Of a DNA stretch of 61,885 nt, positions 1,570 through 19,332 are shown piece after piece (position 1 is the stretch's first letter; the number at the start of each line of letters is the position of its first letter). Below the pieces are notes generated by a model. The model was not told the origin of the DNA, ran no database searches, and saw only the letters and a program-made list of their open reading frames with translations. The DNA lies in the NCBI RefSeq assembly GCF_001552735.1, contig NZ_BCRT01000009.1, positions 1 through 61,885 on the forward strand, written 5' to 3'. The position numbers and the translations under genes were made by a program. The stretch is from Sanguibacter suarezii NBRC 16159. Lineage in GTDB: Bacteria; Actinomycetota; Actinomycetes; Actinomycetales; Cellulomonadaceae.

Positions 1570-1620
1570 TTAGTGGATCGCGCCTCCTTCGAGGGGTCAC
1601 CGGTCCGGAGACGAGGAAGC

Positions 1621-3854: not shown

Positions 3855-4331
3855 TCAGACCCCGCCGACGAAGCCCGCCTGGCGCCACGCCTCGTAGATG
3901 ACGATGGACGCGGAGGAGGTGAGGTTGAGGGAGCGGCGGCTGGGCAGCATCGGGATCTTCACCTGGTCGGTGATGCGCGGGTGAGCCAGGACGGCGTCCT
4001 CCAGGCCGGTCGGCTCCGGGCCGAAGAGCAGGATGTCGCTGGGACGGTAGACGATGTCCGCGTAGCGGGTCGTCGCCTTCGTGGTGAAGGCGAAGACCCG
4101 CGCGGTGAGGTCGCCGGCGAGCAGCGCCTCGAAGTCGGGGTGCACGCTGACGGAGGCGAGGTCGTGGTAGTCCAGGCCGGCGCGCTTGAGCTTGGGCTCG
4201 GACAGGTCGAAGCCGAGCGGCTCGACCAGGTGCAGCCGGGCACCGGTGACCGCCGCGAGGCGGATCGCGTTCCCGGTGTTCTGAGGGATGCGGGGTTCGT
4301 GGAAGGCGATGCTCGGCAGGGTGTCAGTCAC
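3855..4331 (-). CDS. trmL: tRNA (cytidine/uridine-34-2'-O)-methyltransferase, TrmL-like SPOUT
   Basis: SPOUT-fold methyltransferase expected to 2'-O-methylate the wobble nucleotide of leucine tRNAs using SAM. The 158-residue protein begins MTDTLPSIAFHEPRIPQNTGN. It carries the three trefoil-knot motifs: NTGNAIRLA (~18), LFGPEPTGL (~103) and SLNLTSSASIV (~137). The GTG at 4331 is preferred over GTG 4373 because it puts the family motif near the N-terminus and avoids overlap with the upstream gene. Upstream GGGTGG is only a weak ribosome site. It is directly adjacent to glycerate kinase. Confidence 0.87.
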   Translation of the reverse strand: MTDTLPSIAFHEPRIPQNTGNAIRLAAVTGARLHLVEPLGFDLSEPKLKRAGLDYHDLASVSVHPDFEALLAGDLTARVFAFTTKATTRYADIVYRPSDILLFGPEPTGLEDAVLAHPRITDQVKIPMLPSRRSLNLTSSASIVIYEAWRQAGFVGGV

Positions 4332-4360
4332 CCGATGATTCTGCCACCCGCGCGAGGGGC

Positions 4361-5374
4361 TCAGCCGATCCACACCGCGGCGTCGGCGGCGTCGAGCTCC
4401 AGGCCCGCTCCGACCAGCAGTGCGAGCGACTCCCGGGCCAGGGCGAGCCGCTCGGCCGCGGAGGCCTGCGCAGGGCGCGCGGTGACCTTGACCCCGACGA
4501 AGGCGAGGTCAGCGTCACCGGCGGCGGCCAGCGCCGCGGCCACCTCCTCGACCCCGAGCAACGAGGCCGACGACGCGGCGAGGGCTGCGGACTCGCCGCG
4601 CGGTGCCATGTGGGTGTCGTCCCAGGCCGGACCCCAGGCGGTCGCCTGGTCGGTGGCCCCGGAGAAGATGATCGAGCGCAGCAGCCCGGCCTCGGCGGCG
4701 ACGCGCACGTGCTCGGTCGCGGTCTCGCTCGAGCGTCCCTCGATCGCGGACCGGCCCCAGTTGATCCCCACCCCCAGTCGCGCGTCGGGCTGTGCGGCGA
4801 GCACGGTGCGGATCGCGGTGATCTCGTCGTCGATGGTGAGGAATCCCTTGACCGGTGCCTGCCCGGGGACGAGCGCGTCACAGTGCTCGACGACGATCTG
4901 CGCGCCGCCCAGGTCCCACGTCGCCAGCTCGGCGAGGGACTGGGCAAAGGCGTCGACCGACCCGAGCTCGGGGCCGGGGGCGCTGTGCACCTCGATCGCC
5001 GTCACCCGCGGACGGCCGCTCGCGGCGGCGAGGGTGTGGGCCAGGTCCCGGGCGACGGCCAGGTCCGCCAGGGCGGCGCGCCGCCCCTCGGCGTCGGTCG
5101 AGGCGAGGCCGTAGCCGGGGGAGGTGGCCAACCGCATCATGGTCCGCGGGATGCACGTGATCATGAGGTCCCACTCGGGGCGCAGCGTGCTCAGGATCCA
5201 CTCCGGGTCCAGGGCCGGTGCGCCCTCGCCCAGCAGCGGGAGCTCGATCGTGGCGACGGGGAGGTCGCCCAGCCCGGTGTAGAACTCCGCCTCGGCGCGG
5301 CCGGCGTCGGCGTCGGGCCCGGGGGTGAGGGCGTAGGCGCCGAAGGTCAGGGAGGGGAGGGGAGCATGCGTCAT
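4361..5374 (-). CDS. DUF4862 family protein (predicted TIM-barrel-like)
   Basis: A 337-residue cytoplasmic protein matching, from memory of the family, the uncharacterised actinobacterial DUF4862 group. N-terminal FGAYALTPG, central IEVHSAPGP and VVEHCDALVPGQAPVKGF, and the WGRSAIEGRSSETATEHV region are the recognisable blocks. The alternation of beta-strand and acidic/histidine motifs (EVHS, EHCD) resembles sugar isomerase/epimerase-like barrels, but no enzymatic activity is known to me. The ATG at 5374 has GGAG about 8 bases upstream. It lies 60 bp downstream of the Gfo/Idh-DUF6807 gene on the same strand, so co-transcription is likely and a role in the same sugar pathway is inferred. Confidence 0.72.
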   Translation of the reverse strand: MTHAPLPSLTFGAYALTPGPDADAGRAEAEFYTGLGDLPVATIELPLLGEGAPALDPEWILSTLRPEWDLMITCIPRTMMRLATSPGYGLASTDAEGRRAALADLAVARDLAHTLAAASGRPRVTAIEVHSAPGPELGSVDAFAQSLAELATWDLGGAQIVVEHCDALVPGQAPVKGFLTIDDEITAIRTVLAAQPDARLGVGINWGRSAIEGRSSETATEHVRVAAEAGLLRSIIFSGATDQATAWGPAWDDTHMAPRGESAALAASSASLLGVEEVAAALAAAGDADLAFVGVKVTARPAQASAAERLALARESLALLVGAGLELDAADAAVWIG

Positions 5375-5434
5375 CGGGACTCCAGGGGGCGGTCGCGGTC
5401 GCGCGGTCTTCTCGTCTGAGGACTCCATTGTCGG

Positions 5435-7627
5435 CTACCGCAGGCGTGGAACCTCGTTCCACGCCAGCGCCGCGCCGAGGTGTTCCACGCGCGGCCGGGA
5501 CAGGCGCCCGTCGGCCACGGCGACGCGCACCGTGCGGGTCTGGGGTGCTCCGGGGGCCAGGACCGTCTGCCTCTCCCAGGCGATCGCCGAGCCGACGCCG
5601 GGGTAGGAGGCGGCGCGCACCACCCACGGGTCCGCGGCGGTGGGCGCGTCTCCTGCGGCGAAGACGAGGGTGAAGGGTGCACCGCCTCCTACCCCGGCGT
5701 CGCCAGCGTCGCCGCCGTCGCCGCCGTCGCCCGACGGCGTGGCGGTGGCCTGCCAGGCCACCCAGGGTGCGAGCGAGCCGTGCACGGCGTCCTCCCCGAC
5801 GCGGTCCGGGGACCACACGTCGATCTGGCTGCAGGGAGCCACCCGCCAGAAGAACCCGCCGTACCCGCCGCCCGGGCGGCCGTTGGACCCCGGGCTGCCC
5901 AGCACGACGTCGCGCTCGGCCGCGGCGGTCAGCGTCGAGCTGGTCTCCAGGGCCCACGCCGCCTCGTCCAGCTGCCACCAGCGTGTGGTGCGCCGCTCGG
6001 TGAGCAGCGCCGAACCGTCGTGAGCCAGCCAGGTGAGCGCGTCGGTGACGTGCTCCGCGTCCTGGGTCAGCGTTCGGTCGTGGCGGATCGACCCGTGGTC
6101 GTCGCGCCAGAGGTAGCCGTGGTCACGGACGTAGGTGCGTCCGCCCCAGAGGTTGTTCCCGTCCACGTCCTGCACGCCGATGCCGGCTCCGGCGTGCCAG
6201 GTGTGGTCGGCCGGTCGGGCGTCGGTCACGGTGACGCCGGCCAGGGTGCGCACCGGGTGCAGGTGCGGGCGGGGGGAGTCGGAGGGACGCGAGCCCGACC
6301 CGTCGACGAGGCGGGCGACCTCGACCCCGGCCACGCGGGCGGTCGCCAGCTTGCGGTGCGGACCCTCGGGGGAGGGAACCGTCCACGGTGCGCCGAGGGT
6401 GGTGAAGGTCTCCAGGTGCTCGGCCACCTGCTCGCACCAGTGCTCGACGTCGGCCACCACGATGTGCGGGGAGACCGGGGGCGCGACGGTGGTCGCGGGC
6501 GGAGCCGGTGCAGCCGGTTCAGCCGGGTGCCCAGCTGCCCCCGGGAGCACCGTGGTCAGGTGCTCAGGTGAGATCTCGGCCGGGTCCGGGGCCGCCCGGA
6601 CCGCATCGAGGACCCGCATGAACGCCCCCGTCCCCTGGACCGGGCACAGCAGCGCAGCGCCGTCGCGGATGTGGTCGACGAGGTTGGCCAGCAGCCCGGT
6701 CCGTCCGTGCTGCTCGGTCGTGACCTCGGCGCCGCGGCGGATCTGCACGGTGTCGGTCGTGTAGAACAGCGTCGCGCTCGCGGCCGACCCGTGCACCACG
6801 ATGCGCGGCGCGGTCTGGACCGGCGCGCACAGGGTGAGCCCGAGGGCGATGACCGTGCCGGTCCGGGTCCGGATCCGCACGCTCGAGGTGTCGTCCGCCT
6901 CGATGCGGTTGCCACGGTAGAGGTCCGTGGTCACCTCGGTCACGTCGCCGGCCAGGGTGGAGCCGTCCACGGCCAGCGCGGTCGCGACCGCGTGGGCGAG
7001 CGGGTTGGTGACCACGCCGTCCACGACGGGCACGCCGTCGAGCGTGCGGCGCCCGGCCCAGCGGGCGCGCGCCCAGTAGACCTCGTCGCGGGTCCACGTC
7101 CCCACCGCGCCGATGCCGCGCACGGTGCCCAGCTCACCGGAGGTGACGAGCTCGCGGACCCGCGTGAGGGCGTGGGAGCCCAGGGACTGGAATCCGACCT
7201 GGCAGGCCAGGCCGGAGCGCTCGGCTGCGGCGAGCAGCCGCTCGAAGGTGGCCAGGGACGGGGTGGTGGGCTTCTCGAGGAAGACGTGGCTGCCGTGGGC
7301 GAAGGCCAGCTCGGCGAGCTCGAGGTGGGTGTTGATGGGCGTGCAGATGATGGTGATGTCGGGGGAGTGCGCCGCGAAGAGGTCGGCTGCGCTGGCGTAG
7401 ACCCGGTCGGCGCTGAGGGTCTCGGTGATGGTGGCGGGCGGGGCCGGGTCGGCGACGGCGACGAGCTCGACGAGGGCGGGGCGCCCTTCCCGCGCGGTGG
7501 ACAGGTCGGCGATGACCCGCAGGTGGGATCGGCCGTGGCCGCCGGCGCCCAGGAGTGCGACGGTCAGCGGTGACCGGTCGGAGAGTGGATGCGGCGTGGG
7601 GATCGGTTCGGTGGTGGCGACGTGCAC
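5435..7627 (-). CDS. Two-domain Gfo/Idh/MocA oxidoreductase - DUF6807 (PmoA-like) fusion
   Basis: The 730-residue protein joins two domains. Residues ~18-380 are a Gfo/Idh/MocA NAD(P)-dependent oxidoreductase with the dinucleotide motif LLGAGGHGRSH and the catalytic-lysine motif LEKPT near residue 118. Residues ~425-725 are a DUF6807 domain, annotated in databases as PmoA-like although unrelated to methane oxidation. That domain shows the conserved histidines of RPHLHPVRT (~455), ADHTWHAG and NLWGGRTYV. The start is GTG at 7627, preceded by AGGAG at 9 bases; the longer open frame upstream has no ribosome site and would cover the promoter. It diverges from a sugar ABC transporter, so both probably act on the imported sugar. 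No signal peptide is visible. Confidence 0.85.
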   Translation of the reverse strand: MHVATTEPIPTPHPLSDRSPLTVALLGAGGHGRSHLRVIADLSTAREGRPALVELVAVADPAPPATITETLSADRVYASAADLFAAHSPDITIICTPINTHLELAELAFAHGSHVFLEKPTTPSLATFERLLAAAERSGLACQVGFQSLGSHALTRVRELVTSGELGTVRGIGAVGTWTRDEVYWARARWAGRRTLDGVPVVDGVVTNPLAHAVATALAVDGSTLAGDVTEVTTDLYRGNRIEADDTSSVRIRTRTGTVIALGLTLCAPVQTAPRIVVHGSAASATLFYTTDTVQIRRGAEVTTEQHGRTGLLANLVDHIRDGAALLCPVQGTGAFMRVLDAVRAAPDPAEISPEHLTTVLPGAAGHPAEPAAPAPPATTVAPPVSPHIVVADVEHWCEQVAEHLETFTTLGAPWTVPSPEGPHRKLATARVAGVEVARLVDGSGSRPSDSPRPHLHPVRTLAGVTVTDARPADHTWHAGAGIGVQDVDGNNLWGGRTYVRDHGYLWRDDHGSIRHDRTLTQDAEHVTDALTWLAHDGSALLTERRTTRWWQLDEAAWALETSSTLTAAAERDVVLGSPGSNGRPGGGYGGFFWRVAPCSQIDVWSPDRVGEDAVHGSLAPWVAWQATATPSGDGGDGGDAGDAGVGGGAPFTLVFAAGDAPTAADPWVVRAASYPGVGSAIAWERQTVLAPGAPQTRTVRVAVADGRLSRPRVEHLGAALAWNEVPRLR

Positions 7628-7687
7628 GGTACGTGCTCCTGACTCGCGTGTGTCCAGGTGGTCATGACACCCGCCACACAGTCGTCG

Positions 7688-7717
7688 TTGACATGTGTCG
7701 TGCATCACTGCTAAAAC
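7688..7717 (+). promoter_or_regulatory. Predicted sigma-70-type promoter for the first ABC transporter
   Basis: TTGACA at 7688-7693 is followed after 18 bases by TAAAAC (7712-7717). It lies upstream of the permease gene starting at 7782, and the palindromic operator begins about 11 bases after the -10. Confidence 0.5.
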
Positions 7718-7727
7718 TACTACATGA

Positions 7728-7747
7728 GTTGGAGAGCGCTCTCCAAC
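7728..7747. promoter_or_regulatory. LacI-type operator
   Basis: GTTGGAGAGCGCTCTCCAAC is a perfect 20-bp palindrome with the central CG step typical of LacI/CcpA-family operators and similar to CebR-like sites (GGGAGCGCTCCC). It sits just downstream of the predicted -10 of the ABC transporter promoter, where binding would block transcription. It lies in the divergent gap shared with the Gfo/Idh-DUF6807 gene. One of the three LacI regulators at 22-25 kb is the likely ligand (inference). Confidence 0.72.
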
Positions 7748-7781
7748 ACTCCGGGCTATCAACGAAGATTGCCGAGGCACC

Positions 7782-8732
7782 ATGTCTGCACCAACGGAAC
7801 TGCGCTCGACGACCCGCACCGCTGGACGGCGTGGTAGACGAGGGCCGGCGACCGCGTCCGAGAAGAGGGATGCCAAGGCAGCCCTGTTCTTCCTGGCCCC
7901 CTGGGCCGTCGGGCTCGTCCTCATCACCGTGGGGCCCATCACGGCCTCCCTCTACCTGTCCTTCACGGACTACAGCCTGCTCGCGCCGCCCGAGTGGATC
8001 GGCCTGGAGAACTACGAGCGGATGATCGACGACCCGCGCCTGCACACGGCGCTGGCGGTGACCTTCCGCTACGTGTTCATCTCGGTCCCGCTCCAGCTCA
8101 TCGCGGCCCTCGGGCTGGCGATGATCCTCGACCGCGGTGTCCGCGGGCTCGCGATCTACCGGTCGATGTACTACCTGCCCTCCCTGCTCGGCGGGTCGGT
8201 CGCCGTCGCCATCCTGTGGCGTCAGGTCTTCGGCACGGACGGGCTCGTCAACCAGCTGCTCGCCTTCTTCGGCATCCAGGGGCAGGGCTGGGTGTCTCAC
8301 CCGGAGTACGCCCTGGGCACGCTCATGATCCTCAACGTATGGACCTTCGGGGCTCCGATGGTCATCTTCCTCGCCGGGCTGCGGCAGATCCCGGAGATGT
8401 ACTACGAGGCGGCCGCGATCGACGGCGCGGGCAAGGTGCGGCTGTTCTTCTCCATCACCATCCCGCTGCTCACGCCGATCATCTTCTTCAACCTCGTGCT
8501 GCAGGTCATCAACGCCTTCCAGTCCTTCACGCAGGCGTTCATCGTCTCGGGAGGCTCGGGCGGACCCGCCGACTCGACGCTCTTCTTCACGCTGTACCTC
8601 TACCAGAAGGGCTTCGGAGCCCTGGACATGGGGTACGCCTCAGCGATGGCCTGGCTGCTCCTGGGCATCATCGCTGCACTCACCGCCGTGAACTTCTTCG
8701 CCTCGAAGTATTGGGTCTTCTACAATGACTGA
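7782..8732 (+). CDS. Carbohydrate ABC transporter permease (MalF type)
   Basis: Integral-membrane subunit of a CUT1-family sugar importer. The 316-residue protein has a hydrophilic N-terminus and about six membrane segments, the first around LFFLAPWAVGLVLITVGPI. The EAA loop EAAAIDGAGKVRLFFSITIP near residue 205 contacts the ATPase. It starts at ATG 7782 with GAGG just upstream. It is the first gene of a permease-permease-binding protein cluster; no ATPase is encoded here, so a shared MsiK-like ATPase elsewhere is expected, as is usual for actinobacterial CUT1 systems. It overlaps the next gene by 8 bases. Confidence 0.92.
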   Translation: MSAPTELRSTTRTAGRRGRRGPATASEKRDAKAALFFLAPWAVGLVLITVGPITASLYLSFTDYSLLAPPEWIGLENYERMIDDPRLHTALAVTFRYVFISVPLQLIAALGLAMILDRGVRGLAIYRSMYYLPSLLGGSVAVAILWRQVFGTDGLVNQLLAFFGIQGQGWVSHPEYALGTLMILNVWTFGAPMVIFLAGLRQIPEMYYEAAAIDGAGKVRLFFSITIPLLTPIIFFNLVLQVINAFQSFTQAFIVSGGSGGPADSTLFFTLYLYQKGFGALDMGYASAMAWLLLGIIAALTAVNFFASKYWVFYND

Positions 8733-9651
8733 TTCCCTTGTCCTCGCCGAGAAGTCGTCCGCGAGCGCCGGCCAGAGCTCCTCCACCTCGCGACGTCGCG
8801 AGCACCGCAAGCCCTCCGCGGCCAAGCGTCGAGCCAGGGCGGTGGTCAAGCACACGCTGCTCATCATCTTCGGCCTGATCATGCTGTACCCGCTGCTGTG
8901 GATGCTGGCCAGCTCCTTCAAGCCGAGCTCGTTGATCTTCCGGGACCCCTCGCTCATCCCGTCCACGGTCGACCTGAGCAACTACACCGGTGGCTGGAAC
9001 GCACTGTCCCACCCCTTCGGGCACTACATCATGAACTCCGCGATCGTGGTGGCCGGGTCGCTGCTGGGCAACCTCATCGCCTGCTCGATGGCCGCCTACG
9101 CCTTCGCCCGGCTGAACTTCCGCGGCCGCAAGCTGCTCTTCGCGATCATGCTCATGACGATCATGCTGCCGATCCACGTCATCATCGTGCCGCAGTACAT
9201 CCTGTTCTCCCAGCTGCAGTGGATCAACACCTTCCTGCCGCTGATCGTGCCGAAGCTGCTGGCCACGGACGCGTTCTTCATCTTCCTCATGGTCCAGTTC
9301 TTCCGCGGGATCCCCAAGGAGCTCGACGAGGCCGCCCGCCTGGACGGCTGCGGTCACATCCGCACGTACTTCCGGATCATGCTGCCGCTGTCGGTCCCGG
9401 CCTTGGCCACGACCGCGATCTTCACGTTCATCTGGACCTGGAACGACTTCTTCAGCCAGCTGATCTTCCTCACCCGACCGGACATGTACACGGTCCCGGT
9501 GGCGCTGCGCACCTTCGTCGACGCCACGGGTCAGACGAGCTGGGGGCCGCTGTTTGCGATGTCCATCGTCTCCCTCATCCCCATCTTCCTCGTCTTCCTC
9601 TTCGGCCAGAAGTACCTGGTCAAGGGCATCGCCACGACCGGTATCAAGTAG
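8725..9651 (+). CDS. Carbohydrate ABC transporter permease (MalG type)
   Basis: Second membrane subunit of the importer, 308 residues. A charged N-terminus is followed by six predicted membrane segments (first: TLLIIFGLIMLYPLLWMLAS). The EAA motif is ELDEAARLDGCGHIRTYFRI near residue 198. The ATG at 8725 overlaps the end of the preceding permease by 8 bases, indicating translational coupling. The MalG-type C-terminus ends LVKGIATTGIK. The transporter substrate is not readable from sequence; its neighbours suggest an oligosaccharide or glycoside. Confidence 0.92.
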   Translation: MTDSLVLAEKSSASAGQSSSTSRRREHRKPSAAKRRARAVVKHTLLIIFGLIMLYPLLWMLASSFKPSSLIFRDPSLIPSTVDLSNYTGGWNALSHPFGHYIMNSAIVVAGSLLGNLIACSMAAYAFARLNFRGRKLLFAIMLMTIMLPIHVIIVPQYILFSQLQWINTFLPLIVPKLLATDAFFIFLMVQFFRGIPKELDEAARLDGCGHIRTYFRIMLPLSVPALATTAIFTFIWTWNDFFSQLIFLTRPDMYTVPVALRTFVDATGQTSWGPLFAMSIVSLIPIFLVFLFGQKYLVKGIATTGIK

Positions 9652-9732
9652 GCCGGCCACGCTGCCCCTCACGACGCACATCTCACCGGAACGACCCGTC
9701 AGAGCACTGCAAGGCACAAGCAAAGGAGCATG

Positions 9733-11106
9733 ATGTCTCAGCACAGCACCTCACCGTTCCCCCCGTCCCACCCCCCACGCGCCCGACGCCGGTCGATCGC
9801 CACCACCGCGGGCCTCGCCGTGGTCGGCCTGCTCCTGGCAGGCTGCGGCGGCGGCGACGGCGGGCTCGCGCCCGCCGAGGCGTCCCCCAAGACCAGCACC
9901 TCCGCCGGCGGCGACGAGAAGGTCGAGCTGCGGTTCTCCTGGTGGGGCTCGGACACCCGGCACGCTCTCAACCAGGAGGTCATCGACCTCTTCACCGCTG
10001 AGCACCCCAACATCACGATCGTCGCCGACTACACCAGCTGGGGTGACTACTGGGACAAGCTCTCCACCACCGTCGCAGCCGGGGACACCCCGGACGTGAT
10101 GATGCAGGAGGAGCGCTACCTGCGCGAGTACGCCACCAAGGGCGTGGTCCAGGACATGTCGGCCCTGACCAGCCTGGACCTGAGCGGGATCGAGGAGGAG
10201 ATCCTCTCCGCCGGGAACTTCGACGACGGCCAGTTCGGTGTCCCCACCGGTATCAACACCTACGCCTTCGTCGCCGACCCCGAGGTCTACGCGGCAGCCG
10301 GCGTGGAGCTCCCGGACGACACCACGTGGACCTGGGACGACTACATCGAGGTCACGACCGCGATCTCCGCCAACTCTCCTGACGGTGTCTACGGCGCGCA
10401 GGACTACGGCTTCAACGAGCCCGGCTTCGCGATCTTCGCCCGCCAGAAGGGTGAGGAGCTCTACAACCCCGACGGCAGCCTGGGCTTCAGCAAGGAGACC
10501 CTCGCCGAGTGGTGGAGCATGTCCCTGACGCTGCAGGACGCCGGCGCGACGCCGCCTGCGACCAAGAGCGTGGAGGTGGAGAACGGCGGCCCGGAGATGT
10601 CCCTGGTGGGCACCGGGCAAGGCGGCAACTCGCTGTTCTGGACCAACCAGCTCGGCGCGCTGACCAGCGCGGCCGGTCACGAGCTCAAGCTGCTGCGTCA
10701 CCCTGGCGAGGCGGACGGGGAGCGGACGGGCATGTACTTCAAGCCCTCGATGTACTACTCCATCTCCTCCACGACCGAGCACCCGGAGGAGGCGGCCCTC
10801 TTCGTCGACTTCATGCTCAACGACGTCGAGGCCGGCAAGATCATCCTCTCCGACCGTGGCCTGCCGGCCAACACCTCGGTGCGTGAGGCGGTCCAGGAGA
10901 GCTTCACCGACGTGGACAAGCAGTCCGCAGCCTTCCTGGCAGACCTGGGGCCGGTCATCGTCGACTCCCTCGCCACCCCGCCCGTCGGCTCGGGTGAGGT
11001 CGTGAACATCATCAAGCGCATCAACGAGCAGGTGCTGTTCCGTCAGATCACCCCGGAGCAGGCGGCCGAGCAGTTCATGTCAGAGGTCGAGCAGGCCACG
11101 AGCTGA
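9733..11106 (+). CDS. Extracellular sugar-binding lipoprotein (SBP family 1)
   Basis: Substrate-binding component of the first ABC importer, about 457 residues. An Arg-rich n-region, a hydrophobic stretch (TAGLAVVGLLLAGC) and a lipobox cysteine near residue 37 indicate a lipoprotein anchored on the outer membrane face, followed by a Gly/Ser linker. The mature part starts ELRFSWWGSD, a classic family-1 sugar-binding opening. AAAGGAG lies just upstream; ATG 9733 is preferred to the adjacent ATG 9730 on spacing. It is followed by a strong hairpin and then by Gfo/Idh genes. The ligand is unknown. Confidence 0.92.
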   Translation: MSQHSTSPFPPSHPPRARRRSIATTAGLAVVGLLLAGCGGGDGGLAPAEASPKTSTSAGGDEKVELRFSWWGSDTRHALNQEVIDLFTAEHPNITIVADYTSWGDYWDKLSTTVAAGDTPDVMMQEERYLREYATKGVVQDMSALTSLDLSGIEEEILSAGNFDDGQFGVPTGINTYAFVADPEVYAAAGVELPDDTTWTWDDYIEVTTAISANSPDGVYGAQDYGFNEPGFAIFARQKGEELYNPDGSLGFSKETLAEWWSMSLTLQDAGATPPATKSVEVENGGPEMSLVGTGQGGNSLFWTNQLGALTSAAGHELKLLRHPGEADGERTGMYFKPSMYYSISSTTEHPEEAALFVDFMLNDVEAGKIILSDRGLPANTSVREAVQESFTDVDKQSAAFLADLGPVIVDSLATPPVGSGEVVNIIKRINEQVLFRQITPEQAAEQFMSEVEQATS

Positions 11107-11175
11107 TCCCTGCCGGCCGGGACGCGGCACCGATCAGTGAGCTGATCGTGTGCAGCGGCTCGCGCTGACGTACTA

Positions 11176-11213
11176 CCGTCGGCCCAGACCCGCCGGAGGG
11201 TCTGGGCCGACGG
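11176..11213 (+). terminator. Intercistronic hairpin after the binding-protein gene
   Basis: Arms 11176-11191 and 11198-11213 are perfectly complementary over 16 bases with a 6-base loop. There is no U tract, so it may stabilise upstream mRNA or cause partial termination before the Gfo/Idh genes, a common way to over-express the binding protein. Confidence 0.7.
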
Positions 11214-11244
11214 TCCGTGACAGACAAGAACAGGAGCAGTCCAC

Positions 11245-12591
11245 GTGGGAGACAGTGCAGGTGGTGCAGTGCGACGGTACGCCGTCGTCGGGGCGGGGCA
11301 CCGTGCGCAGATGTACGTCGACTCGATCCTCGCCGACCACGGCGACGTCGCGCAGATCGTGGCGTGGTGCGAGCCCAACCCCGTGCGTGCGGACTACTTC
11401 GACGGGCTGCTCCAGGCCGCCGGGCTCCCCGCGGTCCCGCGGTACCTGCCGGCCGACCTCGAGGTGATGATCGCCGACGAGCGCGTCGACACCGTCATCG
11501 TGACCAGCCCGGACGACACCCACGCGGAGATGGCCACCCGGGCCATGCGGGCCGGCGCGGACGTCGTCATCGAGAAGCCGTTGACCACGGATCTGGCGGG
11601 CAGCCGCCGATTCATCGAGGCGCTCGAGGACACCGGCCGGTCCCTCGTCCTGACGTTCAACTACCGCTACGCCGCGCGCAACTCCGCCCTCAAGGAGGTC
11701 ATCTCCTCCGGGGAGATCGGGGAGGTGACCTCGGTGCACTTCGAGTGGCTGCTGGACACCATGCACGGAGCCGACTACTTCCGGCGCTGGCACCGTGACC
11801 GGGAACGGTCCGGCGGGCTGCTGGTCCACAACTCCTCCCACCACTTCGACCTCGTCAACTGGTGGCTCGACGACTTCCCCTCCCGCGTCTTCGCCAGCGG
11901 CGGCCTGCGCTTCTACGGAGACGTCAACGCCAAGGCGCGCGGCCTGGGCCGGCGCCCCGAACGCGGCACGACGACGCCGCCGAGCAACGACCCCTTCGCC
12001 CTGGACCTGCGGGACGACCCCCGCCTCAAGGCCCTCTACCTCGACGCCGAGGAGCACGACGGGTACCTGCGTGACCGGGACGTGTTCTCTCCCGGCATCA
12101 CGATCGAGGACAACATGTCCGTGCTCGTCGACTACACCCGCGGCGCCTCGCTCACCTACTCCCTCAACACCCACAGCCCGTGGGAGGGGTACCGGGTGGG
12201 GATCAACGGCACCGAGGGACGGGTCGAGCTGGAGGTCGTCGAGCGCGGTGCGCTGCTGCCCCGGGCCGACGGCCGCCGCGACCTCGACGCCTCCAAGACC
12301 GGGCACGAGGACGCGCCCGGCGAGCTGCGCCCCCGCGGAGAACGCATCCTCGTCCAGCGCCACTGGGAGGCCTCGCGCGAGGTGGCGATCCACCGCACCG
12401 ATGGGGCGCACGGCGGCGGCGACGCGCAGATGCTCGCCGACGTCTTCCGCGGCCCGGCCCCGGACTCCCTGGGACGACCGGCCAACTACAAGGACGGGCT
12501 CCGGTCCGTCGTCGTGGGCATCGCGGCCACGTCGTCGTTGCGGATCGGCCTCCCGGTACGCATCGCGGACCTCGGGCTCGACCTGACCTGA
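11245..12591 (+). CDS. Gfo/Idh/MocA family oxidoreductase (paralogue A)
   Basis: Predicted NAD(P)-dependent sugar or glycoside dehydrogenase, 448 residues. Visible features are the Rossmann motif VVGAGHRAQMY at the N-terminus, the catalytic Lys in VIEKPLT (~110), NYRYAARNS and the conserved VHNSSHHFDLVNWW (~200), which supplies the catalytic His/Asp region. The GTG at 11245 has AGGAG 8 bases upstream. There is no signal peptide. It is longer than typical 330-380-residue family members and very similar in layout to the next gene, so the two look like a tandem duplication. It follows the ABC transporter on the same strand, suggesting it oxidises the imported sugar. Confidence 0.87.
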   Translation: MGDSAGGAVRRYAVVGAGHRAQMYVDSILADHGDVAQIVAWCEPNPVRADYFDGLLQAAGLPAVPRYLPADLEVMIADERVDTVIVTSPDDTHAEMATRAMRAGADVVIEKPLTTDLAGSRRFIEALEDTGRSLVLTFNYRYAARNSALKEVISSGEIGEVTSVHFEWLLDTMHGADYFRRWHRDRERSGGLLVHNSSHHFDLVNWWLDDFPSRVFASGGLRFYGDVNAKARGLGRRPERGTTTPPSNDPFALDLRDDPRLKALYLDAEEHDGYLRDRDVFSPGITIEDNMSVLVDYTRGASLTYSLNTHSPWEGYRVGINGTEGRVELEVVERGALLPRADGRRDLDASKTGHEDAPGELRPRGERILVQRHWEASREVAIHRTDGAHGGGDAQMLADVFRGPAPDSLGRPANYKDGLRSVVVGIAATSSLRIGLPVRIADLGLDLT

Positions 12592-12662
12592 GGCGATCGC
12601 GCGACCTGCCCTGCTCAACCCGCCCTGCACCCACGCTTCGTCGAACCGAGAGTGAGCTCATC

Positions 12663-14030
12663 ATGACCACCCGCCGCAGATACGCCGTCGCAGGGCTGGG
12701 CAACCGGGCCGAGATGTTCGTCGAGGCCATCGCCGGCCCCCACCAGGACGTCGCCGAGCTGGTGGCCTGGTGCGAGCCGAACCCCACCCGCGCGGCGTAC
12801 TACGACGCCAGGTGCGCTGAGCTGGGCATCTGTGCGGACCCGCTGCCGCGCTACGACCCCGAGGCCCTCGAGGCGATGATCGCCGAGCAACGGGTCGACG
12901 TCGTCATCGTCACCACCCCGGACTACACCCACGCTGACCTGGTGACCCGCGCCATGCGCGCCGGGGCCGACGTCGTGGTGGAGAAGCCGCTGACCATCGA
13001 CCTGGCCGGCGCCCTGGCCATCGAGGAAGCCCGCGCCGAGACCGGGCGGGACCTGACGGTGACCTTCAACTACCGCTACTCCCCGCGCAACAGCGCCCTC
13101 AAGGAGGTGCTGCGCAGCGGCGTGATCGGTGAGGTGACGTCGGTGCACTTCGAGTGGGTGCTGGACACACGGCACGGCGCCGACTACTTCCGGCGCTGGC
13201 ACCGGCTCAAGGAGCAGTCCGGGGGCCTGCTCGTCCACAAGTCCTCGCACCACTTCGACCTCGTCAACTGGTGGCTCGACGACGTGCCGTCCCGCGTCTT
13301 CGCCAGCGGCGGGCTGCGGTTCTACGGGCCGGAGAACGCGGCCGCGCGCGGGCTGGAGGACCGGCCCGTGCGCGGGACCGGTGACCACGCTGCGAGCGAC
13401 CCTTTCGCCCTCGACCTGCGCGACGACCCCCGCCTGCGCGACCTCTACCTCGAGGCCGAGGACCACGACGGGTACCTGCGTGACCTCGACGTCTTCACCG
13501 GTCCCATCACCATCGAGGACAACCTGGCCGTGCTCGTCGACTACCGCTCCGGGGCCACCCTCACCTACTCCCTCAACGCCCACGGCCCCTGGGAGGGGTA
13601 CACCGTCGCGGTCAACGGCACGGGCGGGCGAGCGGAGCTGTCAGTCGTGGAACGGACCTCGGTCCCACCGTTCCCCGGCCACGGAGTCCTCGACGCGAGC
13701 GCCCACGACGAGCCCGGCGGGGCAGCGCGCACCCCCGGCGCCGTGAACGAGGACCTCGAGCCCGCGCGGGTGCGCGGCAACCGGCTGGTGGTCCAGCAGC
13801 ACTGGGGCGAGGCCCGCACCGTCCCGGTGGCGGAGGGCGCAGGAGGGCACGGCGGGGGAGACGCCGCGCTGCTGGCCCACGTCTTCCGCGGGGTCAGCCA
13901 CGACCCCCTCGGCCTGCACGCGGGGCCCCGGGACGGCTTCCGGTCCCTCGCCGTCGGGATCGCGGCGAACGCCTCGCTGGAGTCCGGCAACGCCGAGCGT
14001 GTCCTCGAGCTGGGACTGCCGCTGCACTGA
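12663..14030 (+). CDS. Gfo/Idh/MocA family oxidoreductase (paralogue B)
   Basis: 455-residue paralogue of the upstream gene with the same motif order: VAGLGNRAEMF, VVEKPLT (~107), NYRYSPRNSALKEVL, GADYFRRWHR, and VHKSSHHFDLVNWWLDD (~197). Long segments are identical between the two, so both probably bind related substrates with different specificity, or form a hetero-oligomer. The start is ATG 12663; the frame is open further upstream, but that part overlaps the previous gene out of frame. The ribosome site (GTGAGC) is weak. The gene ends just before a new promoter/operator region. Confidence 0.87.
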   Translation: MTTRRRYAVAGLGNRAEMFVEAIAGPHQDVAELVAWCEPNPTRAAYYDARCAELGICADPLPRYDPEALEAMIAEQRVDVVIVTTPDYTHADLVTRAMRAGADVVVEKPLTIDLAGALAIEEARAETGRDLTVTFNYRYSPRNSALKEVLRSGVIGEVTSVHFEWVLDTRHGADYFRRWHRLKEQSGGLLVHKSSHHFDLVNWWLDDVPSRVFASGGLRFYGPENAAARGLEDRPVRGTGDHAASDPFALDLRDDPRLRDLYLEAEDHDGYLRDLDVFTGPITIEDNLAVLVDYRSGATLTYSLNAHGPWEGYTVAVNGTGGRAELSVVERTSVPPFPGHGVLDASAHDEPGGAARTPGAVNEDLEPARVRGNRLVVQQHWGEARTVPVAEGAGGHGGGDAALLAHVFRGVSHDPLGLHAGPRDGFRSLAVGIAANASLESGNAERVLELGLPLH

Positions 14031-14040
14031 CACGATCCCT

Positions 14041-14141
14041 GAGATTTCGATCTCTGGGGAGCGCCCGCACATAACTGGCGCGAAAACAATGGTGGACATC
14101 ACAGCCTTCCTAAGGCAAGATCTCTCGAGAGATCGATCTCT
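14041..14141 (+). promoter_or_regulatory. Promoter with GATCTCT-type palindromic operators
   Basis: A likely promoter is TGGACA (14093-14098), 17 bases, CAAGAT (14116-14121). The perfect 16-bp palindrome GATCTCTCGAGAGATC at 14119-14134 overlaps the -10. The half-site CGATCTCT recurs at 14134-14141 and at 14049-14056, the latter inside the inverted repeat GAGAT-ttcg-ATCTC (14041-14054). This looks like cooperative repression of the downstream ThuA/oxidoreductase/xylanase/transporter genes. The regulator is unknown; a neighbouring LacI protein is plausible. Confidence 0.6.
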
Positions 14142-14179
14142 GCGGCAACGATGCCGCTCGGCCTGGGGAGTTGAGATGC

Positions 14180-14437
14180 ATGGGCGACGACCCCTGGGGC
14201 CACCTCCCCGTCCGCGTCGAGGAGGACGCCGCCTCCCGCACAGAGCGCATCTCCTTCATCCTCAGCGCTGCTGACGAGACCGCTCCCCAGCTGCCGAGGC
14301 TGACCACGCACGCCTGCGCCGTCGCCCTGACCCGCCGTGAGCGGGAGACCACCCGTGCCGCGGGTCGGCTGCGACGAGCGGAGCCGAGGACCACGGTCGA
14401 ACCGACCGGGCGACACGAGAGGACACGACAGACATGA
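14180..14437 (+). CDS. Small hypothetical protein coupled to thuA-like gene
   Basis: An 85-residue ORF that I do not recognise. Support is a GGGGAG site 9 bases before ATG 14180, strong G/C third-position bias over the first ~55 codons, and a stop codon that overlaps the next gene's start (ATGA at 14434). The N-terminal half is acidic (MGDDPWGHLPVRVEEDAAS); the C-terminal half is rich in Arg and Thr. There are no membrane segments. It could be a small regulatory or accessory protein, or merely a leader cistron for translational coupling. Confidence 0.45.
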   Translation: MGDDPWGHLPVRVEEDAASRTERISFILSAADETAPQLPRLTTHACAVALTRRERETTRAAGRLRRAEPRTTVEPTGRHERTRQT

Positions 14438-15135
14438 GACAAGCACTCGTGGTGCGCGGGGGGTGGGACGGTCACCAGCCGGAGGCTGCGACCGACCTCT
14501 TCGTGCCCTTCCTGCGCGAGCAGGGCTTCGAGGTGGACATCGAGAAGGACAACGAGGTCTACGCCGACGCCGCACGGATGGCCGAGGTCGACCTCGTCCT
14601 GCAGAGCGTGACGATGACCGAGATCAGCGGCCCCGCCGTCGCGGGGCTGCGGGCAGCCGTCGCCGCCGGGACGGGCCTGGCCGGCTGGCACGGAGGGATC
14701 GCCGACTCCTACCGCAACAGCTCGGACTACCTCCAGCTCGTCGGGGGCCAGTTCGCCACCCACCCGGGCAAGCACCCGCAGGAGCGGGTCGGCGACGCCA
14801 GCGACAACTACCTGCGCTACACGGTCGAGGTCACCGACGCGGGGCGAGAGCACCCGATCATGGCTGGCATCGAGGACTTCGAGCTCGAGACGGAGCAGTA
14901 CTGGGTGCTGCACGACGACCTCATCGACGTCCTCGCCACCACGACGCACCCCGTGCAGCCGTGGCACCCGTGGCACCGTCCCGTCACCTCGCCCGCGGTC
15001 TGGACCCGGCTGTGGGGCGCGGGACGCGTCGTCGTGGTCACCCCCGGGCACTCGCCCGAGGTGCTCACCGACCCGAATGTTCGCACGATCGTGGAGAGGG
15101 GCCTGCTGTGGGCGAGCCGCACGGAATCGGAGTAA
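14434..15135 (+). CDS. ThuA domain protein
   Basis: 233-residue ThuA-like protein (class I glutamine-amidotransferase-like fold) of the family named after Sinorhizobium trehalose utilisation ThuA. Recognisable parts are the opening ALVVRGGWDGHQPE, a GLAGWHGGIADSYRNS core near residue 83, and the GGQFATHPG segment. ThuA proteins co-occur with Gfo/Idh/MocA (ThuB-like) dehydrogenases acting through 3-keto sugars; the exact reaction of ThuA is not established. Its start overlaps the upstream small ORF by 4 bases, and its end overlaps the following Gfo/Idh gene by 28 bases, so all are one transcriptional unit. Confidence 0.9.
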   Translation: MRQALVVRGGWDGHQPEAATDLFVPFLREQGFEVDIEKDNEVYADAARMAEVDLVLQSVTMTEISGPAVAGLRAAVAAGTGLAGWHGGIADSYRNSSDYLQLVGGQFATHPGKHPQERVGDASDNYLRYTVEVTDAGREHPIMAGIEDFELETEQYWVLHDDLIDVLATTTHPVQPWHPWHRPVTSPAVWTRLWGAGRVVVVTPGHSPEVLTDPNVRTIVERGLLWASRTESE

Positions 15136-16226
15136 TCGGTCTCGGCGTCATCCTGGACGCGTATCTGACGACGCTGGCTGACCACCACGGGGTGCGGATC
15201 GCCGCCGTCGCCGACCTCGACCCCGCGCGGGCCGCGGCCGTCGCGGACGCCCTCCCCGGGACCCGAGCGTGCTCGGTCGACGAGCTGCTCGGTACGGACG
15301 ACGTCGAGACGGTCCTCGACCTGACGACCCCCGGGGCGCACGCCGAGATCGCGCTGGCCTGCGCGCGCAGCGGGAAGAACCACTACGGCGAGAAGCCGCT
15401 CGCCTCGACGCTCGACGACGCCCGCCGCGTCGTCCAGGCGGCAGGCGCCGCGGGGATCGGGCTGGGCTGCGCGCCCGACACGGTCCTGGGCACCGGCGTC
15501 CAGACGGCGCGCGCCATCATCGACGCGGGGCTCATCGGCACCCCGACGGGCGCCGTGGCGACCTGGGTCTCACCCGGGCACGAGGCCTGGCACCCCAACC
15601 CGGACTTCTACTACCTGCCCGGCGGCGGCCCGCTGCTGGACATGGGTCCGTACTACCTCACGAGCCTGGTCCACCTGCTCGGTCCGGTCGTGGCAGTGAC
15701 CGGGTCGGCCGGTCGTCTGCGCGACCGGCGGACCATCGCCTCGGGGGCCCGCGCCGGTGAGGTGGTGCCGGTGGAGGTCGCCACCCACGTCGCCGGCACC
15801 CTCGAGCACGCCACCGGTGCGATCTCGACCGTGACGGTGAGCTTCGACGCGGCCGGCACCCGGGCCCGGCCCATCGAGGTGTACGGCGACGAGGGCGCGG
15901 TCGCCGTCCCCGACCCCAACACCTTCGCGGGGGACGTCGAGCTCCTCAGGCGTGGCAGCACCTCGTGGGACCTCGTGGCGCCGCGAGCCGGCTTCGTGGA
16001 CTCCTCGCGCGGCCTCGGGCTGCTCGAGATGGTCGGCTCCGCCGGCCTCGGCGCAGCCCCGGAGACGGCGCGGGCGAGCGGGGCGGTCGGGCTGCACGTC
16101 ATGGAGATCATGACCGGGCTGCTCGAGGCAGCGAGCAGCGGCCGGCGCACAGCCGTCACCACGGCACCTGCCCGTCCCGACCTCGTGCCGCTGACCGAAC
16201 GCGAGACGTGGCGGTGGGGCATATGA
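15108..16226 (+). CDS. Gfo/Idh/MocA family oxidoreductase (ThuB-like position)
   Basis: 372-residue NAD(P)-dependent oxidoreductase with IGVIGLGVILDAY at the N-terminus, the catalytic-lysine motif YGEKPLAS near residue 96, and GGGPLLDMGPYYLTSLVHL (~177). Its length is normal for the family and it is not a close copy of paralogues A and B. The GTG at 15108 is preceded by GAGAGGGG and lies inside the end of the ThuA gene; the frame is open far upstream but without support. The pairing with ThuA mirrors ThuA-ThuB, where ThuB oxidises a disaccharide at C3, so a 3-keto-sugar product is inferred. Confidence 0.87.
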   Translation: MGEPHGIGVIGLGVILDAYLTTLADHHGVRIAAVADLDPARAAAVADALPGTRACSVDELLGTDDVETVLDLTTPGAHAEIALACARSGKNHYGEKPLASTLDDARRVVQAAGAAGIGLGCAPDTVLGTGVQTARAIIDAGLIGTPTGAVATWVSPGHEAWHPNPDFYYLPGGGPLLDMGPYYLTSLVHLLGPVVAVTGSAGRLRDRRTIASGARAGEVVPVEVATHVAGTLEHATGAISTVTVSFDAAGTRARPIEVYGDEGAVAVPDPNTFAGDVELLRRGSTSWDLVAPRAGFVDSSRGLGLLEMVGSAGLGAAPETARASGAVGLHVMEIMTGLLEAASSGRRTAVTTAPARPDLVPLTERETWRWGI

Positions 16227-17422
16227 GCACCGACCACCGGACAGGGACGGCGTCGCTGCGGCTCACCAGCGAGAGCGGGGAGACGCTCGCGCACCGCGAC
16301 GTCCGGGTGCGCCAGGTCCGCCACGCCCTCGAGTTCGGCTGCGCCGCCTTCGAGGTCGCCCAGGCGGGCGAGGACTACCAGCAGCTCTGGCTGGACCTCT
16401 TCGACACCGCGACGCTCCCGGTCTACTGGGGACGCTACGAGCCGGAGCGCGGCGCGACGCGACGCGACGACCTCATGACCGCGGCGCGCTGGTTCGCCGA
16501 GCGCGACGTCCGGCTCAAGGGCCACCCCCTCGTGTGGCACACGGTCAAGGCGCCGTGGGTCGACGCGCTCGCGCTCGAGGAGGCCGAGGCGCTGCTGCGC
16601 GGACGGGTGCGCCGCGAGGTGGGTGACTTCGCCGGGCTCATCACCACCTGGGACGCGATCAACGAGGTCGTCATCATGCCGCGCTTCACCAACGAGCCCG
16701 ACGGCGTCCCGAACGCGATCACGCGCCTGTGCGCCCAGAAGGGGCGCGTCGAGATGGTGCGCCTCGCCGTGGAGGAGGCCCGCTCTGTGGGCACGACGCC
16801 GCGGCTGGTCCTCAACGACTTCGACCTCGGTCCCGAGTACGAGCAGCTCATCGAGGAGGTGCTCGCCGCCGGCATCGAGATCGACGCCATCGGTCTGCAG
16901 TCGCACATGCACCAGGGCTTCCGGGGCGAGGAGCAGCTGTGGGAGATCTCCGACAGGTTCGCGCGCTTCGGTCTGCCGCTGCACTGGACCGAGACGACGC
17001 TCGTCTCGGGCGACCTCATGCCGGCCGAGATCACCGACCTCAACGACCACGTCGTCGCCTCCTGGCCGAGCACCCCCGAGGGGGAGGCACGCCAGGCAGA
17101 CGAGATCGTCCGTCAGTACACCACGCTCGTCGAGCACCCCGCGGTCGAGTCGATCACGTACTGGGGCATGGGTGACGCGGGTGCGTGGCTCAACGCACCG
17201 GCCGGGCTGGTGCGAGCCGACGGCTCCGCCAAGCCCGCCTACCACGCGCTGCGCGACCTCGTCCGTGGGACGTGGTGGCTCGACCCGACGACGGTGCGCA
17301 CGGACGAAGACGGCCGCCTGCCCCTCGCCGGCTTCGCTGGGAGGTACGAGCTCGAGCTCGACGCGAGGTCTGCTCAGGTCGACCTCGCTCCCGGGGACCA
17401 GGCCCTGGACGTGGTGCTGTGA
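16223..17422 (+). CDS. GH10 endo-beta-1,4-xylanase-like enzyme, apparently cytoplasmic
   Basis: Glycoside hydrolase family 10 enzyme of 399 residues. The acid/base Glu is in WDAINEV near residue 147 and the nucleophile Glu in LHWTET near residue 256. Substrate-binding blocks KGHPLVWHT and SHMHQGF are also present. There is no signal peptide: the protein begins MSTDHRTGTASLRL, with a short N-terminal beta segment. It would therefore act on imported xylo-oligosaccharides or aryl-xylosides inside the cell. The ATG overlaps the stop of the preceding oxidoreductase (ATGA), so it belongs to the ThuA operon. It lacks carbohydrate-binding modules. Confidence 0.88.
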   Translation: MSTDHRTGTASLRLTSESGETLAHRDVRVRQVRHALEFGCAAFEVAQAGEDYQQLWLDLFDTATLPVYWGRYEPERGATRRDDLMTAARWFAERDVRLKGHPLVWHTVKAPWVDALALEEAEALLRGRVRREVGDFAGLITTWDAINEVVIMPRFTNEPDGVPNAITRLCAQKGRVEMVRLAVEEARSVGTTPRLVLNDFDLGPEYEQLIEEVLAAGIEIDAIGLQSHMHQGFRGEEQLWEISDRFARFGLPLHWTETTLVSGDLMPAEITDLNDHVVASWPSTPEGEARQADEIVRQYTTLVEHPAVESITYWGMGDAGAWLNAPAGLVRADGSAKPAYHALRDLVRGTWWLDPTTVRTDEDGRLPLAGFAGRYELELDARSAQVDLAPGDQALDVVL

Positions 17423-17555
17423 GCGACGACGCCGGGCTGAGGCCGCCCTGAGGACACCGCGAGGCACCCGCACGCACCACCCCCCCACGCGTCACCCACG
17501 CAGCAGACACCGACGTCCGCTGACACCGAGCAACCCGATCTCAACGAGGAGAATC

Positions 17556-19244: not shown

Positions 19245-19262
19245 CCAGCTCTGACCAGGCCT

Positions 19263-19308: not shown

Positions 19309-19332
19309 GGGCCCCTGACGAAGGAGTACGGC

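What the first reader, a model, noticed from the sequence alone, without database searches (positions are those of the whole stretch)
4361..17422. Candidate oxidative (3-keto) glycoside-cleavage island
Seen: four Gfo/Idh/MocA oxidoreductase domains (one fused to DUF6807), ThuA, DUF4862 and a signal-less GH10 enzyme around an ABC sugar importer. Known: ThuA/ThuB and Gfo/Idh/MocA enzymes oxidise disaccharides and glycosides at C3 before cleavage, and such loci co-encode barrel proteins. Inference: this locus imports a glycoside or xylo-oligosaccharide, oxidises it, and cleaves it by an elimination step rather than only by hydrolysis. DUF4862 and DUF6807 would be candidates for the missing lyase or hydratase.
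Basis: partly seen in the sequence, partly recalled or inferred. Interest (0 to 1): 0.75.

Follow-up and report, generated by a model that had tools for sequence, protein, structure and literature searches.

The report
Predicted NAD-using pectin-sugar glycosidase locus
What looked like one gene island is three neighbouring sugar-use gene sets, and the most interesting one probably imports pectin fragments and cuts off their acidic sugars with an enzyme that briefly oxidises the sugar using NAD, a function predicted from sequence and not yet tested.

Summary
The genes are real: four Gfo/Idh/MocA domains (one fused to DUF6807), ThuA, DUF4862, GH10 and an ABC importer. They are not one island but three modules. 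(A) DUF4862 sits in a KduI-type deoxy-uronate gene set; 1 of 80 named DUF4862 loci has a close GfoA relative nearby. (B) Gfo-DUF6807, importer and GfoA form a Micrococcales locus: 71 of 77 DUF6807 genomes have GfoA, 33 within 10 kb (about 0.8 expected). UxaA-type dehydratase and PL11 rhamnogalacturonan lyase are often near, pointing to hexuronides. (C) ThuA-GfoC-GH10 and a second importer stand apart in a related genome. GfoA's best solved relatives are NAD+-dependent sulfoquinovosidases (GH188), by a small margin over plain dehydrogenases; it keeps their Lys, Tyr and His, lacks their sulfonate-binding residues, and has a GGHGG-type loop like GH109 in 23 of 24 members, against 0 of 46 other Gfo proteins in the Gfo part. 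Best reading: GfoA/GfoB oxidise, eliminate, hydrate and reduce in one enzyme, so no DUF4862 lyase is needed. No biochemistry was available and structure prediction never ran.

The parts
53..1495 (-). Module A: enolase-superfamily acid-sugar dehydratase (MR_MLE); resemblance to L-fuconate dehydratase is recalled, not tested
   Evidence: Pfam MR_MLE_C 1.9e-61; no NCBIfam model over cut-off; 94% identical and syntenic in Sanguibacter gelidistatuariae
1573..2634 (+). Module A: 2-hydroxyacid dehydrogenase
   Evidence: Pfam PF02826 3.1e-52; 85% in S. gelidistatuariae
2709..3854 (-). Module A: glycerate kinase
   Evidence: Pfam PF02595 1.3e-97
3855..4373 (-). Module A: SpoU-family methyltransferase, TrmL-like (the name TrmL is recalled)
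   Evidence: PF00588 4.4e-27; 91% in S. gelidistatuariae next to DUF4862
4361..5428 (-). Module A: DUF4862, possibly a xylose-isomerase-like barrel, in a deoxy-uronate gene set
   Evidence: PF16154 3.8e-102; weak xylose isomerase match E 0.31; context
5435..7600 (-). Module B: Gfo/Idh/MocA domain fused to DUF6807 (exact start uncertain; open frame reaches 7942)
   Evidence: PF01408, PF22725, PF14100 4.4e-62
7782..8732 (+). Module B: ABC permease 1
   Evidence: PF00528; clustered in 15 of 21 loci compared, window included
8725..9651 (+). Module B: ABC permease 2
   Evidence: PF00528; clustered in 13 of 21 loci compared, window included
9730..11106 (+). Module B: sugar-binding protein
   Evidence: PF01547; clustered in 14 of 21 loci compared, window included
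11245..12591 (+). Module B: GfoA, predicted NAD+-dependent hexuronidase
12663..14030 (+). Module B: GfoB, paralogue of GfoA with the same predicted active-site residues
   Evidence: Pfam; 63-65% identical to GfoA; motif
14434..15135 (+). Module C: ThuA
   Evidence: PF06283 7.1e-44
15126..16226 (+). Module C: GfoC, ThuB-like partner of ThuA; no GGHGG-type loop
   Evidence: Pfam; adjacent to ThuA in 8 of 8 ThuA loci fetched with 20 kb, chosen mostly from the best ThuA matches
16223..17422 (+). Module C: GH10 enzyme, probably cytosolic
   Evidence: PF00331 2.4e-26; 8b73 E 1e-115, which is AcXyn10A
17541..21314 (+). Module C: second ABC importer (binding protein, two permeases)
   Evidence: SBP_bac_8 2.4e-16; PF00528 for both permeases; syntenic with GH10
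21311..22000 (+). Module C: YesL-like membrane protein (name recalled)
   Evidence: no Pfam match; conserved position
22041..25257 (-). Three LacI-type regulators
   Evidence: Pfam; a relative of the first lies beside the ThuA-GH10 operon of G003

Best explanation
The stretch is three neighbouring carbohydrate modules. Module B (5435-14030) is a hexuronide-utilisation locus: the ABC importer brings in a small uronic-acid glycoside, most likely derived from rhamnogalacturonan or pectin, and GfoA/GfoB cleave it in the cytosol as metal-free NAD+-dependent glycosidases: hydride transfer from C3 to NAD+, beta-elimination of the aglycone across C1-C2, water addition, and reduction of the ketone by the NADH just made. 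The net result is hydrolysis, and the freed hexuronate enters the UxaC/UxaA pathway. Shown here: gene content, conservation, co-localisation, presence of the residues. Inferred: the reaction and the substrate. The role of DUF6807 is unresolved; a ligand-binding or accessory domain that couples the pathway to its regulator is my best guess. Module C (ThuA-GfoC plus GH10 and a second importer) is a separate, probably xylan-type oligosaccharide operon, and module A (DUF4862 and left) a deoxy-uronate gene set.
For: Separation of modules: in the four relatives where TrmL is beside DUF4862 (G001, G003, G004, G005, of 13 other genomes examined) no Gfo, ABC, ThuA or GH10 relative of the window is near; of 80 named loci one has a close GfoA relative, while KduI is in 15 and DctM in 18. 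ThuA-GfoC-GH10-importer-YesL is complete in G003 at 2.28 Mb, away from its GfoA loci at 0.58 and 0.61 Mb. Module B coherence: GfoA in 88 and DUF6807 in 77 of 297 genomes (window genome included), 71 shared, 33 within 10 kb against about 0.8 expected. Uronide link: 47 of 59 PF20629 genomes and 47 of 54 PL11 genomes have GfoA; within 10 kb in 20 (0.3 expected) and 12 (0.5 expected) genomes; UxaC, KdgD-type dehydratase and a galactarate-dehydratase relative sit in several loci. The own genome has UxaC, UxaA-type dehydratase, PL11 and a second GfoA/DUF6807 locus on contig C8. Mechanism: best PDB relatives are GH188 8qc2/8qc3; K107, Y136 and H193 of ArSqgA align with K111, Y140 and H199, invariant in 21 of 21. 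Of the five alignments printed only the two GH188 rows have Tyr at the Y140 position. The GHGGGD-type loop with H389 is invariant in 21 of 21 and present in 23 of 24 GfoA-family proteins, in the Gfo part of 0 of 46 other Gfo proteins; GH109's catalytic acid/base lies in a GGHGG loop (title of reference 22).
Against: No activity or structure. The margin over plain dehydrogenases is small: 8qc2 9.7e-25 and 8qc3 1.3e-22, then 3q2k 2.3e-21 and inositol 2-dehydrogenase 4hkt 2.5e-21; the EKP Lys and the His are general to Gfo dehydrogenases (recalled), so Tyr and the loop carry the argument. The main alignment to 8qc2 stops near residue 214, with one weak C-terminal piece, so H389 is matched to H321/H404 by motif and not by alignment. 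ArSqgA E189 is a His in GfoA. 41 of 88 GfoA genomes have no PL11, and only 32 of 88 have UxaA-type dehydratase or PL11 within 20 kb, so the substrate may differ between lineages; several loci carry unrelated glycan enzymes. One paralogue (L177 8516-9892) lacks the loop. In the window itself module B carries no uronate gene. Genomes are related, so counts are not independent; expected values assume random placement. The 20 loci compared were picked because GfoA and DUF6807 are close in them. The epimerase cluster had no PDB relative at 1e-12, so it is not confirmed as uronate dehydrogenase.
Confidence: 0.48

Rival explanations
1. GfoA/GfoB and the Gfo-DUF6807 protein are plain C3 dehydrogenases that make a 3-keto uronide, which a separate lyase and hydratase then break down, as in the levoglucosan pathway or the glucuronide-3-dehydrogenase type.
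For: 8tdi glucuronide-3-dehydrogenase is the fifth-best profile match (E 7.7e-21) and plain dehydrogenases score almost as well as GH188; the levoglucosan pathway uses four separate enzymes (abstract and part 1 of 4 of PMC7676230); DUF6807 is of unknown function.
Against: No PF01261 lyase-type gene among the window ORFs scanned left of 25.3 kb, nor among the recurring clusters that I scanned in relatives; not every neighbour gene was scanned. GfoA has the GGHGG-type loop that the other Gfo proteins lack.
Confidence: 0.24
2. GfoA/GfoB act on free uronates, polyols or inositol-like compounds after cleavage, and a conventional glycosidase elsewhere cuts the bond.
For: The best NCBIfam match is inositol 2-dehydrogenase, far below its cut-off (95 against 355 bits); UxaC and UxaA-type genes are nearby in relatives.
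Against: An oligosaccharide-type importer is part of the core; the GH188/GH109 features would be unexplained; 34 of 44 tested genomes with both PL11 and GfoA have no GH88/GH105 match.
Confidence: 0.18
3. One reading: one island that oxidises xylo-oligosaccharides, with DUF4862 and DUF6807 as lyase/hydratase.
For: All named domains are present; DUF4862 may be a barrel (weak match); in Actinotalea soli too a GfoA locus lies near DUF4862.
Against: DUF4862 is otherwise not linked to close relatives of the Gfo genes; ThuA-GfoC-GH10 is a separate module; DUF6807 is also a LacI C-terminal domain.
Confidence: 0.06

Closest known systems
GH188 NAD+-dependent sulfoquinovosidases (SqgA; 8qc2, 8qc3)
   Same: Gfo/Idh/MocA proteins; Lys, Tyr and His equivalent to K107, Y136, H193; in gene clusters for catabolism of the released acidic sugar
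   Different: Sulfonate-binding R166 and K172 are V/A/L/C/M and G in GfoA; E189 is His; neighbours are uronate and pectin genes where examined, not sulfoglycolysis
GH109 NAD+-dependent alpha-N-acetylgalactosaminidases (6t2b, 2ixa)
   Same: GGHGG-type loop; metal-free NAD+ mechanism proposed
   Different: Weak match (E 1.4e-13 for 6t2b) limited to profile positions 2-152; no sign of a GalNAc context
P2B11 glucuronide-3-dehydrogenase (8tdi)
   Same: Gfo/Idh/MocA profile match E 7.7e-21; acts on an acidic sugar by its name
   Different: Called a dehydrogenase, so it would need partner enzymes; no Tyr at the Y140 position in the printed alignment; its paper is recalled, not held
ThuA/ThuB pair (3-keto disaccharides; recalled)
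   Same: ThuA next to a Gfo protein (GfoC) in module C
   Different: Here tied to a GH10 and its importer; not part of the GfoA/DUF6807 locus
Acetivibrio clariflavus AcXyn10A (8b73), GH10
   Same: Window GH10 matches over residues 4-387, E 1e-115
   Different: Genomic context with ThuA-GfoC; no activity known for the window enzyme

Membership tests
GH188 | NAD-binding Rossmann domain with EKP lysine | tested here: met
   PF01408; K111 in 21 of 21; general to the superfamily
GH188 | Active-site Tyr136 and His193 | tested here: met
   Y140 and H199 invariant in 21 of 21
GH188 | C-terminal catalytic His321 | tested here: inconclusive
   H389 in a GHGGGD-type loop is the candidate; the alignment does not reach it
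GH188 | Sulfonate-binding Arg166 and Lys172 (98.3% and 96.7% of GH188, PMC11465081) | tested here: not met
   Aligned positions 169 and 175 are V/A/L/C/M and G
GH188 | Sulfoglycolytic neighbourhood | tested here: not met
   Uronate and pectin genes where examined; sulfoglycolysis genes were not searched by family
GH188 | Sulfoquinovosidase activity | not testable with these tools
   needs assay
GH109 | GGHGG loop with catalytic His | tested here: met
   GHGGGD/AHGGGD-type loop in 23 of 24; equivalence by motif only
GH109 | Sequence similarity along the whole protein | tested here: not met
   6t2b matched over profile positions 2-152
NAD-dependent GH177 and GH179 | Sequence membership | not tested
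   no sequences or models of these families were at hand
NAD+-dependent oxidoreductive glycosidase (mechanism class) | Transient C3 oxidation, deuterium incorporation at C2 | not testable with these tools
   needs purified enzyme
Multi-enzyme 3-keto glycoside pathway (levoglucosan type) | Separate sugar isomerase-like lyase/hydratase (PF01261 type) in the locus | tested here: not met
   none among the window ORFs scanned left of 25.3 kb; DUF4862 is PF16154 and not linked
ThuA/ThuB | ThuA domain with adjacent Gfo/Idh/MocA gene | tested here: met
GH10 xylanase | GH10 domain with a close solved xylanase relative | tested here: met
   the two catalytic Glu were read by eye only

The most novel reading that the evidence does not exclude
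GfoA is the founder of a so far unassigned family of NAD+-dependent glycosidases that remove galacturonosyl (perhaps 4,5-unsaturated) residues from rhamnogalacturonan fragments, taking the place of GH88/GH105 enzymes in many Micrococcales, with DUF6807 as a domain traded between the pathway's oxidoreductase and its LacI repressor. Assignment to GH177 or GH179 was not tested.
Probability: 0.33. Interest if true: 0.72.

Novelty: new variant of a known kind. Interest (0 to 1): 0.55.

Why it matters
Hexuronide release is usually put down to ordinary hydrolases and to GH88/GH105. A metal-free NAD+-dependent enzyme for uronides would add an acidic-sugar branch to a small set of NAD-dependent families (GH4, 109, 177, 179, 188; passages of PMC11701701) and could explain how Micrococcales that have a PL11 match but no GH88/GH105 match (34 of 44 GfoA-positive genomes tested) use its products. 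It also gives DUF6807, found on an oxidoreductase and on a repressor of the same type of locus, a testable context.

Tried and rejected
Considered and rejected: DUF4862 as pathway lyase (gene order); E. coli YcjR and YihM as DUF4862 relatives (no significant match to my profile; both are PF01261), so the E. coli control that rings stays unidentified; one-island model; GH188 membership (sulfonate residues); DUF6807 as aldose-epimerase-like (hhalign against YihR, probability 0.1 per cent); cluster-6 epimerase as confirmed uronate dehydrogenase (no PDB relative at 1e-12).

Led nowhere: DUF6807 profile against PDB (best E 0.071) and viral contigs gave no relative; searches for the words DUF4862 and DUF6807 found no functional report in the held open-access papers (DUF6807 only named as a number); broad 3-keto searches listed mostly off-topic papers. 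Structure prediction was never accepted because the machine was busy, so no model and no fold search exist. The GH88/GH105 replacement test is weak: strong matches in 4 of 44 tested PL11+GfoA+ genomes against 3 of 7 PL11+GfoA- genomes, Fisher p 0.045, but those three are one genus and their PL11 matches are weak fragments (about 1e-23 to 1e-24); without them it is 0 of 4. Three PL11+GfoA+ genomes (G050, G067, G103) were not tested, the 63 of 88 GfoA-positive genomes and the 40 other GfoA-negative genomes were picked by hand. GfoA counts use E 1e-60 and at most five scored candidates per genome, so they may be low. In one search five genes were counted twice; I give 46 distinct proteins.


Full report
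What is there. Pfam confirms DUF4862, a Gfo/Idh/MocA-DUF6807 fusion, two permeases, a binding protein, GfoA and GfoB, then ThuA, GfoC, GH10, two more permeases and three LacI regulators, and a second binding protein. The four Gfo domains, ThuA, DUF4862 and GH10 of the finding are real. No ABC ATPase turned up among the ORFs scanned.

The window is contig C9 of a 3.8 Mb genome whose DUF4862 is 80% identical to that of Sanguibacter gelidistatuariae. In that species a TrmL-like gene, glycerate kinase, 2-hydroxyacid dehydrogenase and the enolase follow DUF4862 in the same order at 72-94% identity, and then ADH, 2HADH, SDR, IclR and KduI; the same set at 89-91% identity lies at the end of contig C8 of the window's genome. 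C8 therefore probably continues into C9.

DUF4862 (module A). One search found it in 14 of 59 genomes, window included. Around it in the 13 others a TrmL-like gene is near in four; GfoA-like matches are short 28-33% fragments in two; one has distant relatives of the first importer and one of the second. In 80 named loci (the best 80 of 250 that encode a relative; flanks up to 10 kb, several cut by contig ends) KduI occurs in 15, all actinobacterial, and DctM in 18 (families named on one representative each). A close GfoA relative is in 1 (L035, Actinotalea soli, about 3.4 kb away); distant Gfo proteins appear in six more. DUF4862 thus has a deoxy-uronate context in the actinobacterial loci. 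A weak xylose isomerase match (E 0.31) fits a barrel but proves nothing. Its reaction stays unknown.

Module B. In 297 genomes of the order, DUF6807 is in 77 and a close GfoA relative in 88; 71 have both (Fisher p 2e-44), 33 within 10 kb against about 0.8 by random placement. Relatedness inflates the p-value. I compared 20 loci of about 20 kb from 19 genomes and eight families of the order with the window; they were picked because GfoA and DUF6807 lie close in them, so what the comparison adds is that the two permeases and the binding protein recur as well. DUF6807 is a separate gene in some, fused to Gfo in others, and fused to the C-terminus of a LacI repressor in others. Of 46 distinct DUF6807 proteins (51 rows; the window's own not counted) BLAST showed Gfo on 7 and LacI on 6; on the other 33 no partner was recognised, some of them with an unexplained N-terminal stretch or a cut flank. 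Pfam confirmed all 4 LacI fusions tested.

Substrate. By clustering, near module B in these 20 loci are an altronate/galactarate dehydratase (6 loci), UxaC (3), an epimerase (6), a galactarate-dehydratase relative (5) and a KdgD-type dehydratase (4) (one representative each scanned), PL11 rhamnogalacturonan lyase (and cluster 16) and a pectate lyase. Across 297 genomes PF20629 is within 10 kb of GfoA in 20 genomes (0.3 expected) and PL11 in 12 (0.5 expected). The window's genome has UxaC, a PF20629 dehydratase and PL11 on C8, with a second GfoA/DUF6807 locus. Against a single substrate: 41 of 88 GfoA genomes lack PL11, 32 of 88 have PF20629 or PL11 within 20 kb, and some loci carry an alpha-amylase-type protein, an MGH1-like glycoside hydrolase, GH43 or an apiosidase-like protein, or GH51 and AXE1 in the own second locus.

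Mechanism. GfoA's best solved relatives are 8qc2 and 8qc3, GH188 NAD+-dependent sulfoquinovosidases (PMC10755693; parts 1 and 2 of 4 read, passages searched), by a small margin over plain dehydrogenases. GH188 enzymes are reported to do C3 oxidation, elimination, hydration and reduction in one active site. Their Lys107, Tyr136 and His193 fall on K111, Y140 and H199 of GfoA, each invariant in 21 of 21 family members aligned; in the five alignments printed only the two GH188 rows share the Tyr. Glu189 falls on an invariant His, and the sulfonate-binding Arg166 and Lys172 on V/A/L/C/M and Gly, so GfoA fails the GH188 signature (PMC11465081, part 1 of 2 read). GfoA also has an invariant GHGGGD-type loop. 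The title of reference 22 of PMC10755693 places the catalytic acid/base of GH109 in a GGHGG loop. The loop is in 23 of 24 GfoA-family proteins; among 46 other Gfo proteins the string occurs in two, both in the DUF6807 half (read against the alignment). E. coli YcjS and YcjQ, annotated as C3 dehydrogenases, lack it. The match of H389 to ArSqgA His321 is by motif, as the main alignments stop near residue 214. GfoA matches no NCBIfam model over its cut-off. A one-enzyme mechanism would explain the lack of a recognised lyase gene in the conserved core.

GH88/GH105. Of 63 of the 88 GfoA-positive genomes searched, 15 match PF07470. Of 44 of the 47 that also have PL11, 34 have no match, 6 a weak one and 4 a strong one; the window's genome has none. 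Of 7 PL11-positive GfoA-negative genomes 3 match strongly, all one genus and with only weak PL11 fragments. This is a hint of replacement, no more.

Module C. ThuA-GfoC-GH10-binding protein-permeases-YesL occur in the same order in G003 at 66-88% identity, away from its GfoA loci. ThuA relatives are in 108 of 297 genomes, GH10 relatives in 57 of 297. GfoC is next to ThuA in 8 of 8 ThuA loci fetched, mostly best matches; GH10 with its importer also occurs without ThuA-GfoC. Neighbours in relatives include GH43, GH3, GH95 and GH127 enzymes. The GH10 resembles 8b73 (E 1e-115), Acetivibrio clariflavus AcXyn10A (passages of PMC11966585). Module C is therefore likely an ordinary oligosaccharide operon joined to a ThuA/ThuB-like pair.

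Literature. The levoglucosan pathway (PMC7676230, part 1 of 4 read) shows the multi-enzyme variant. The broad-specificity glycan pathway paper and the ThuA/ThuB 3-keto work are recalled, not read (one search was a listing). No functional report on DUF4862 or DUF6807 was found in the held papers; most subscription papers are not held.

Noticed in passing
L175, L176, L177, L178, L179, L186: DUF6807 fused to the C-terminus of a LacI repressor (HTH, sugar-binding domain, DUF6807) beside the same kind of GfoA/ABC locus; Pfam-confirmed in the 4 tested.
   Followed up: partly
L177:8516-9892: A second GfoA paralogue that lacks the GHGGGD-type loop, possibly a changed or lost function.
   Followed up: no
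L262 (end of contig C8) and window 1-1495: Gene order against Sanguibacter gelidistatuariae suggests contig C8 continues into the window contig, with KduI, IclR, SDR, 2HADH and ADH just outside the window.
   Followed up: partly
L171: Second GfoA locus of the own genome: GH51, GfoA, another Gfo, stand-alone DUF6807, cupin and AXE1 esterase.
   Followed up: partly
L250:7772-11158: ThuA-GfoC pair next to a relative (74%) of the window's enolase-type dehydratase.
   Followed up: no
window 40672-44909: Apparent glycerol gene set: FGGY kinase, MIP channel and FAD glycerophosphate dehydrogenase-type protein (Pfam).
   Followed up: no
window 51065-58167: A further sugar operon: LacI, binding protein, permeases (one scanned) and a GH3 enzyme.
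   Followed up: no
L035:10001-20936 (Actinotalea soli): DUF4862/KduI/TRAP genes and a GfoA/ABC/Gfo locus lie within about 4 kb of each other, as in the window.
   Followed up: no
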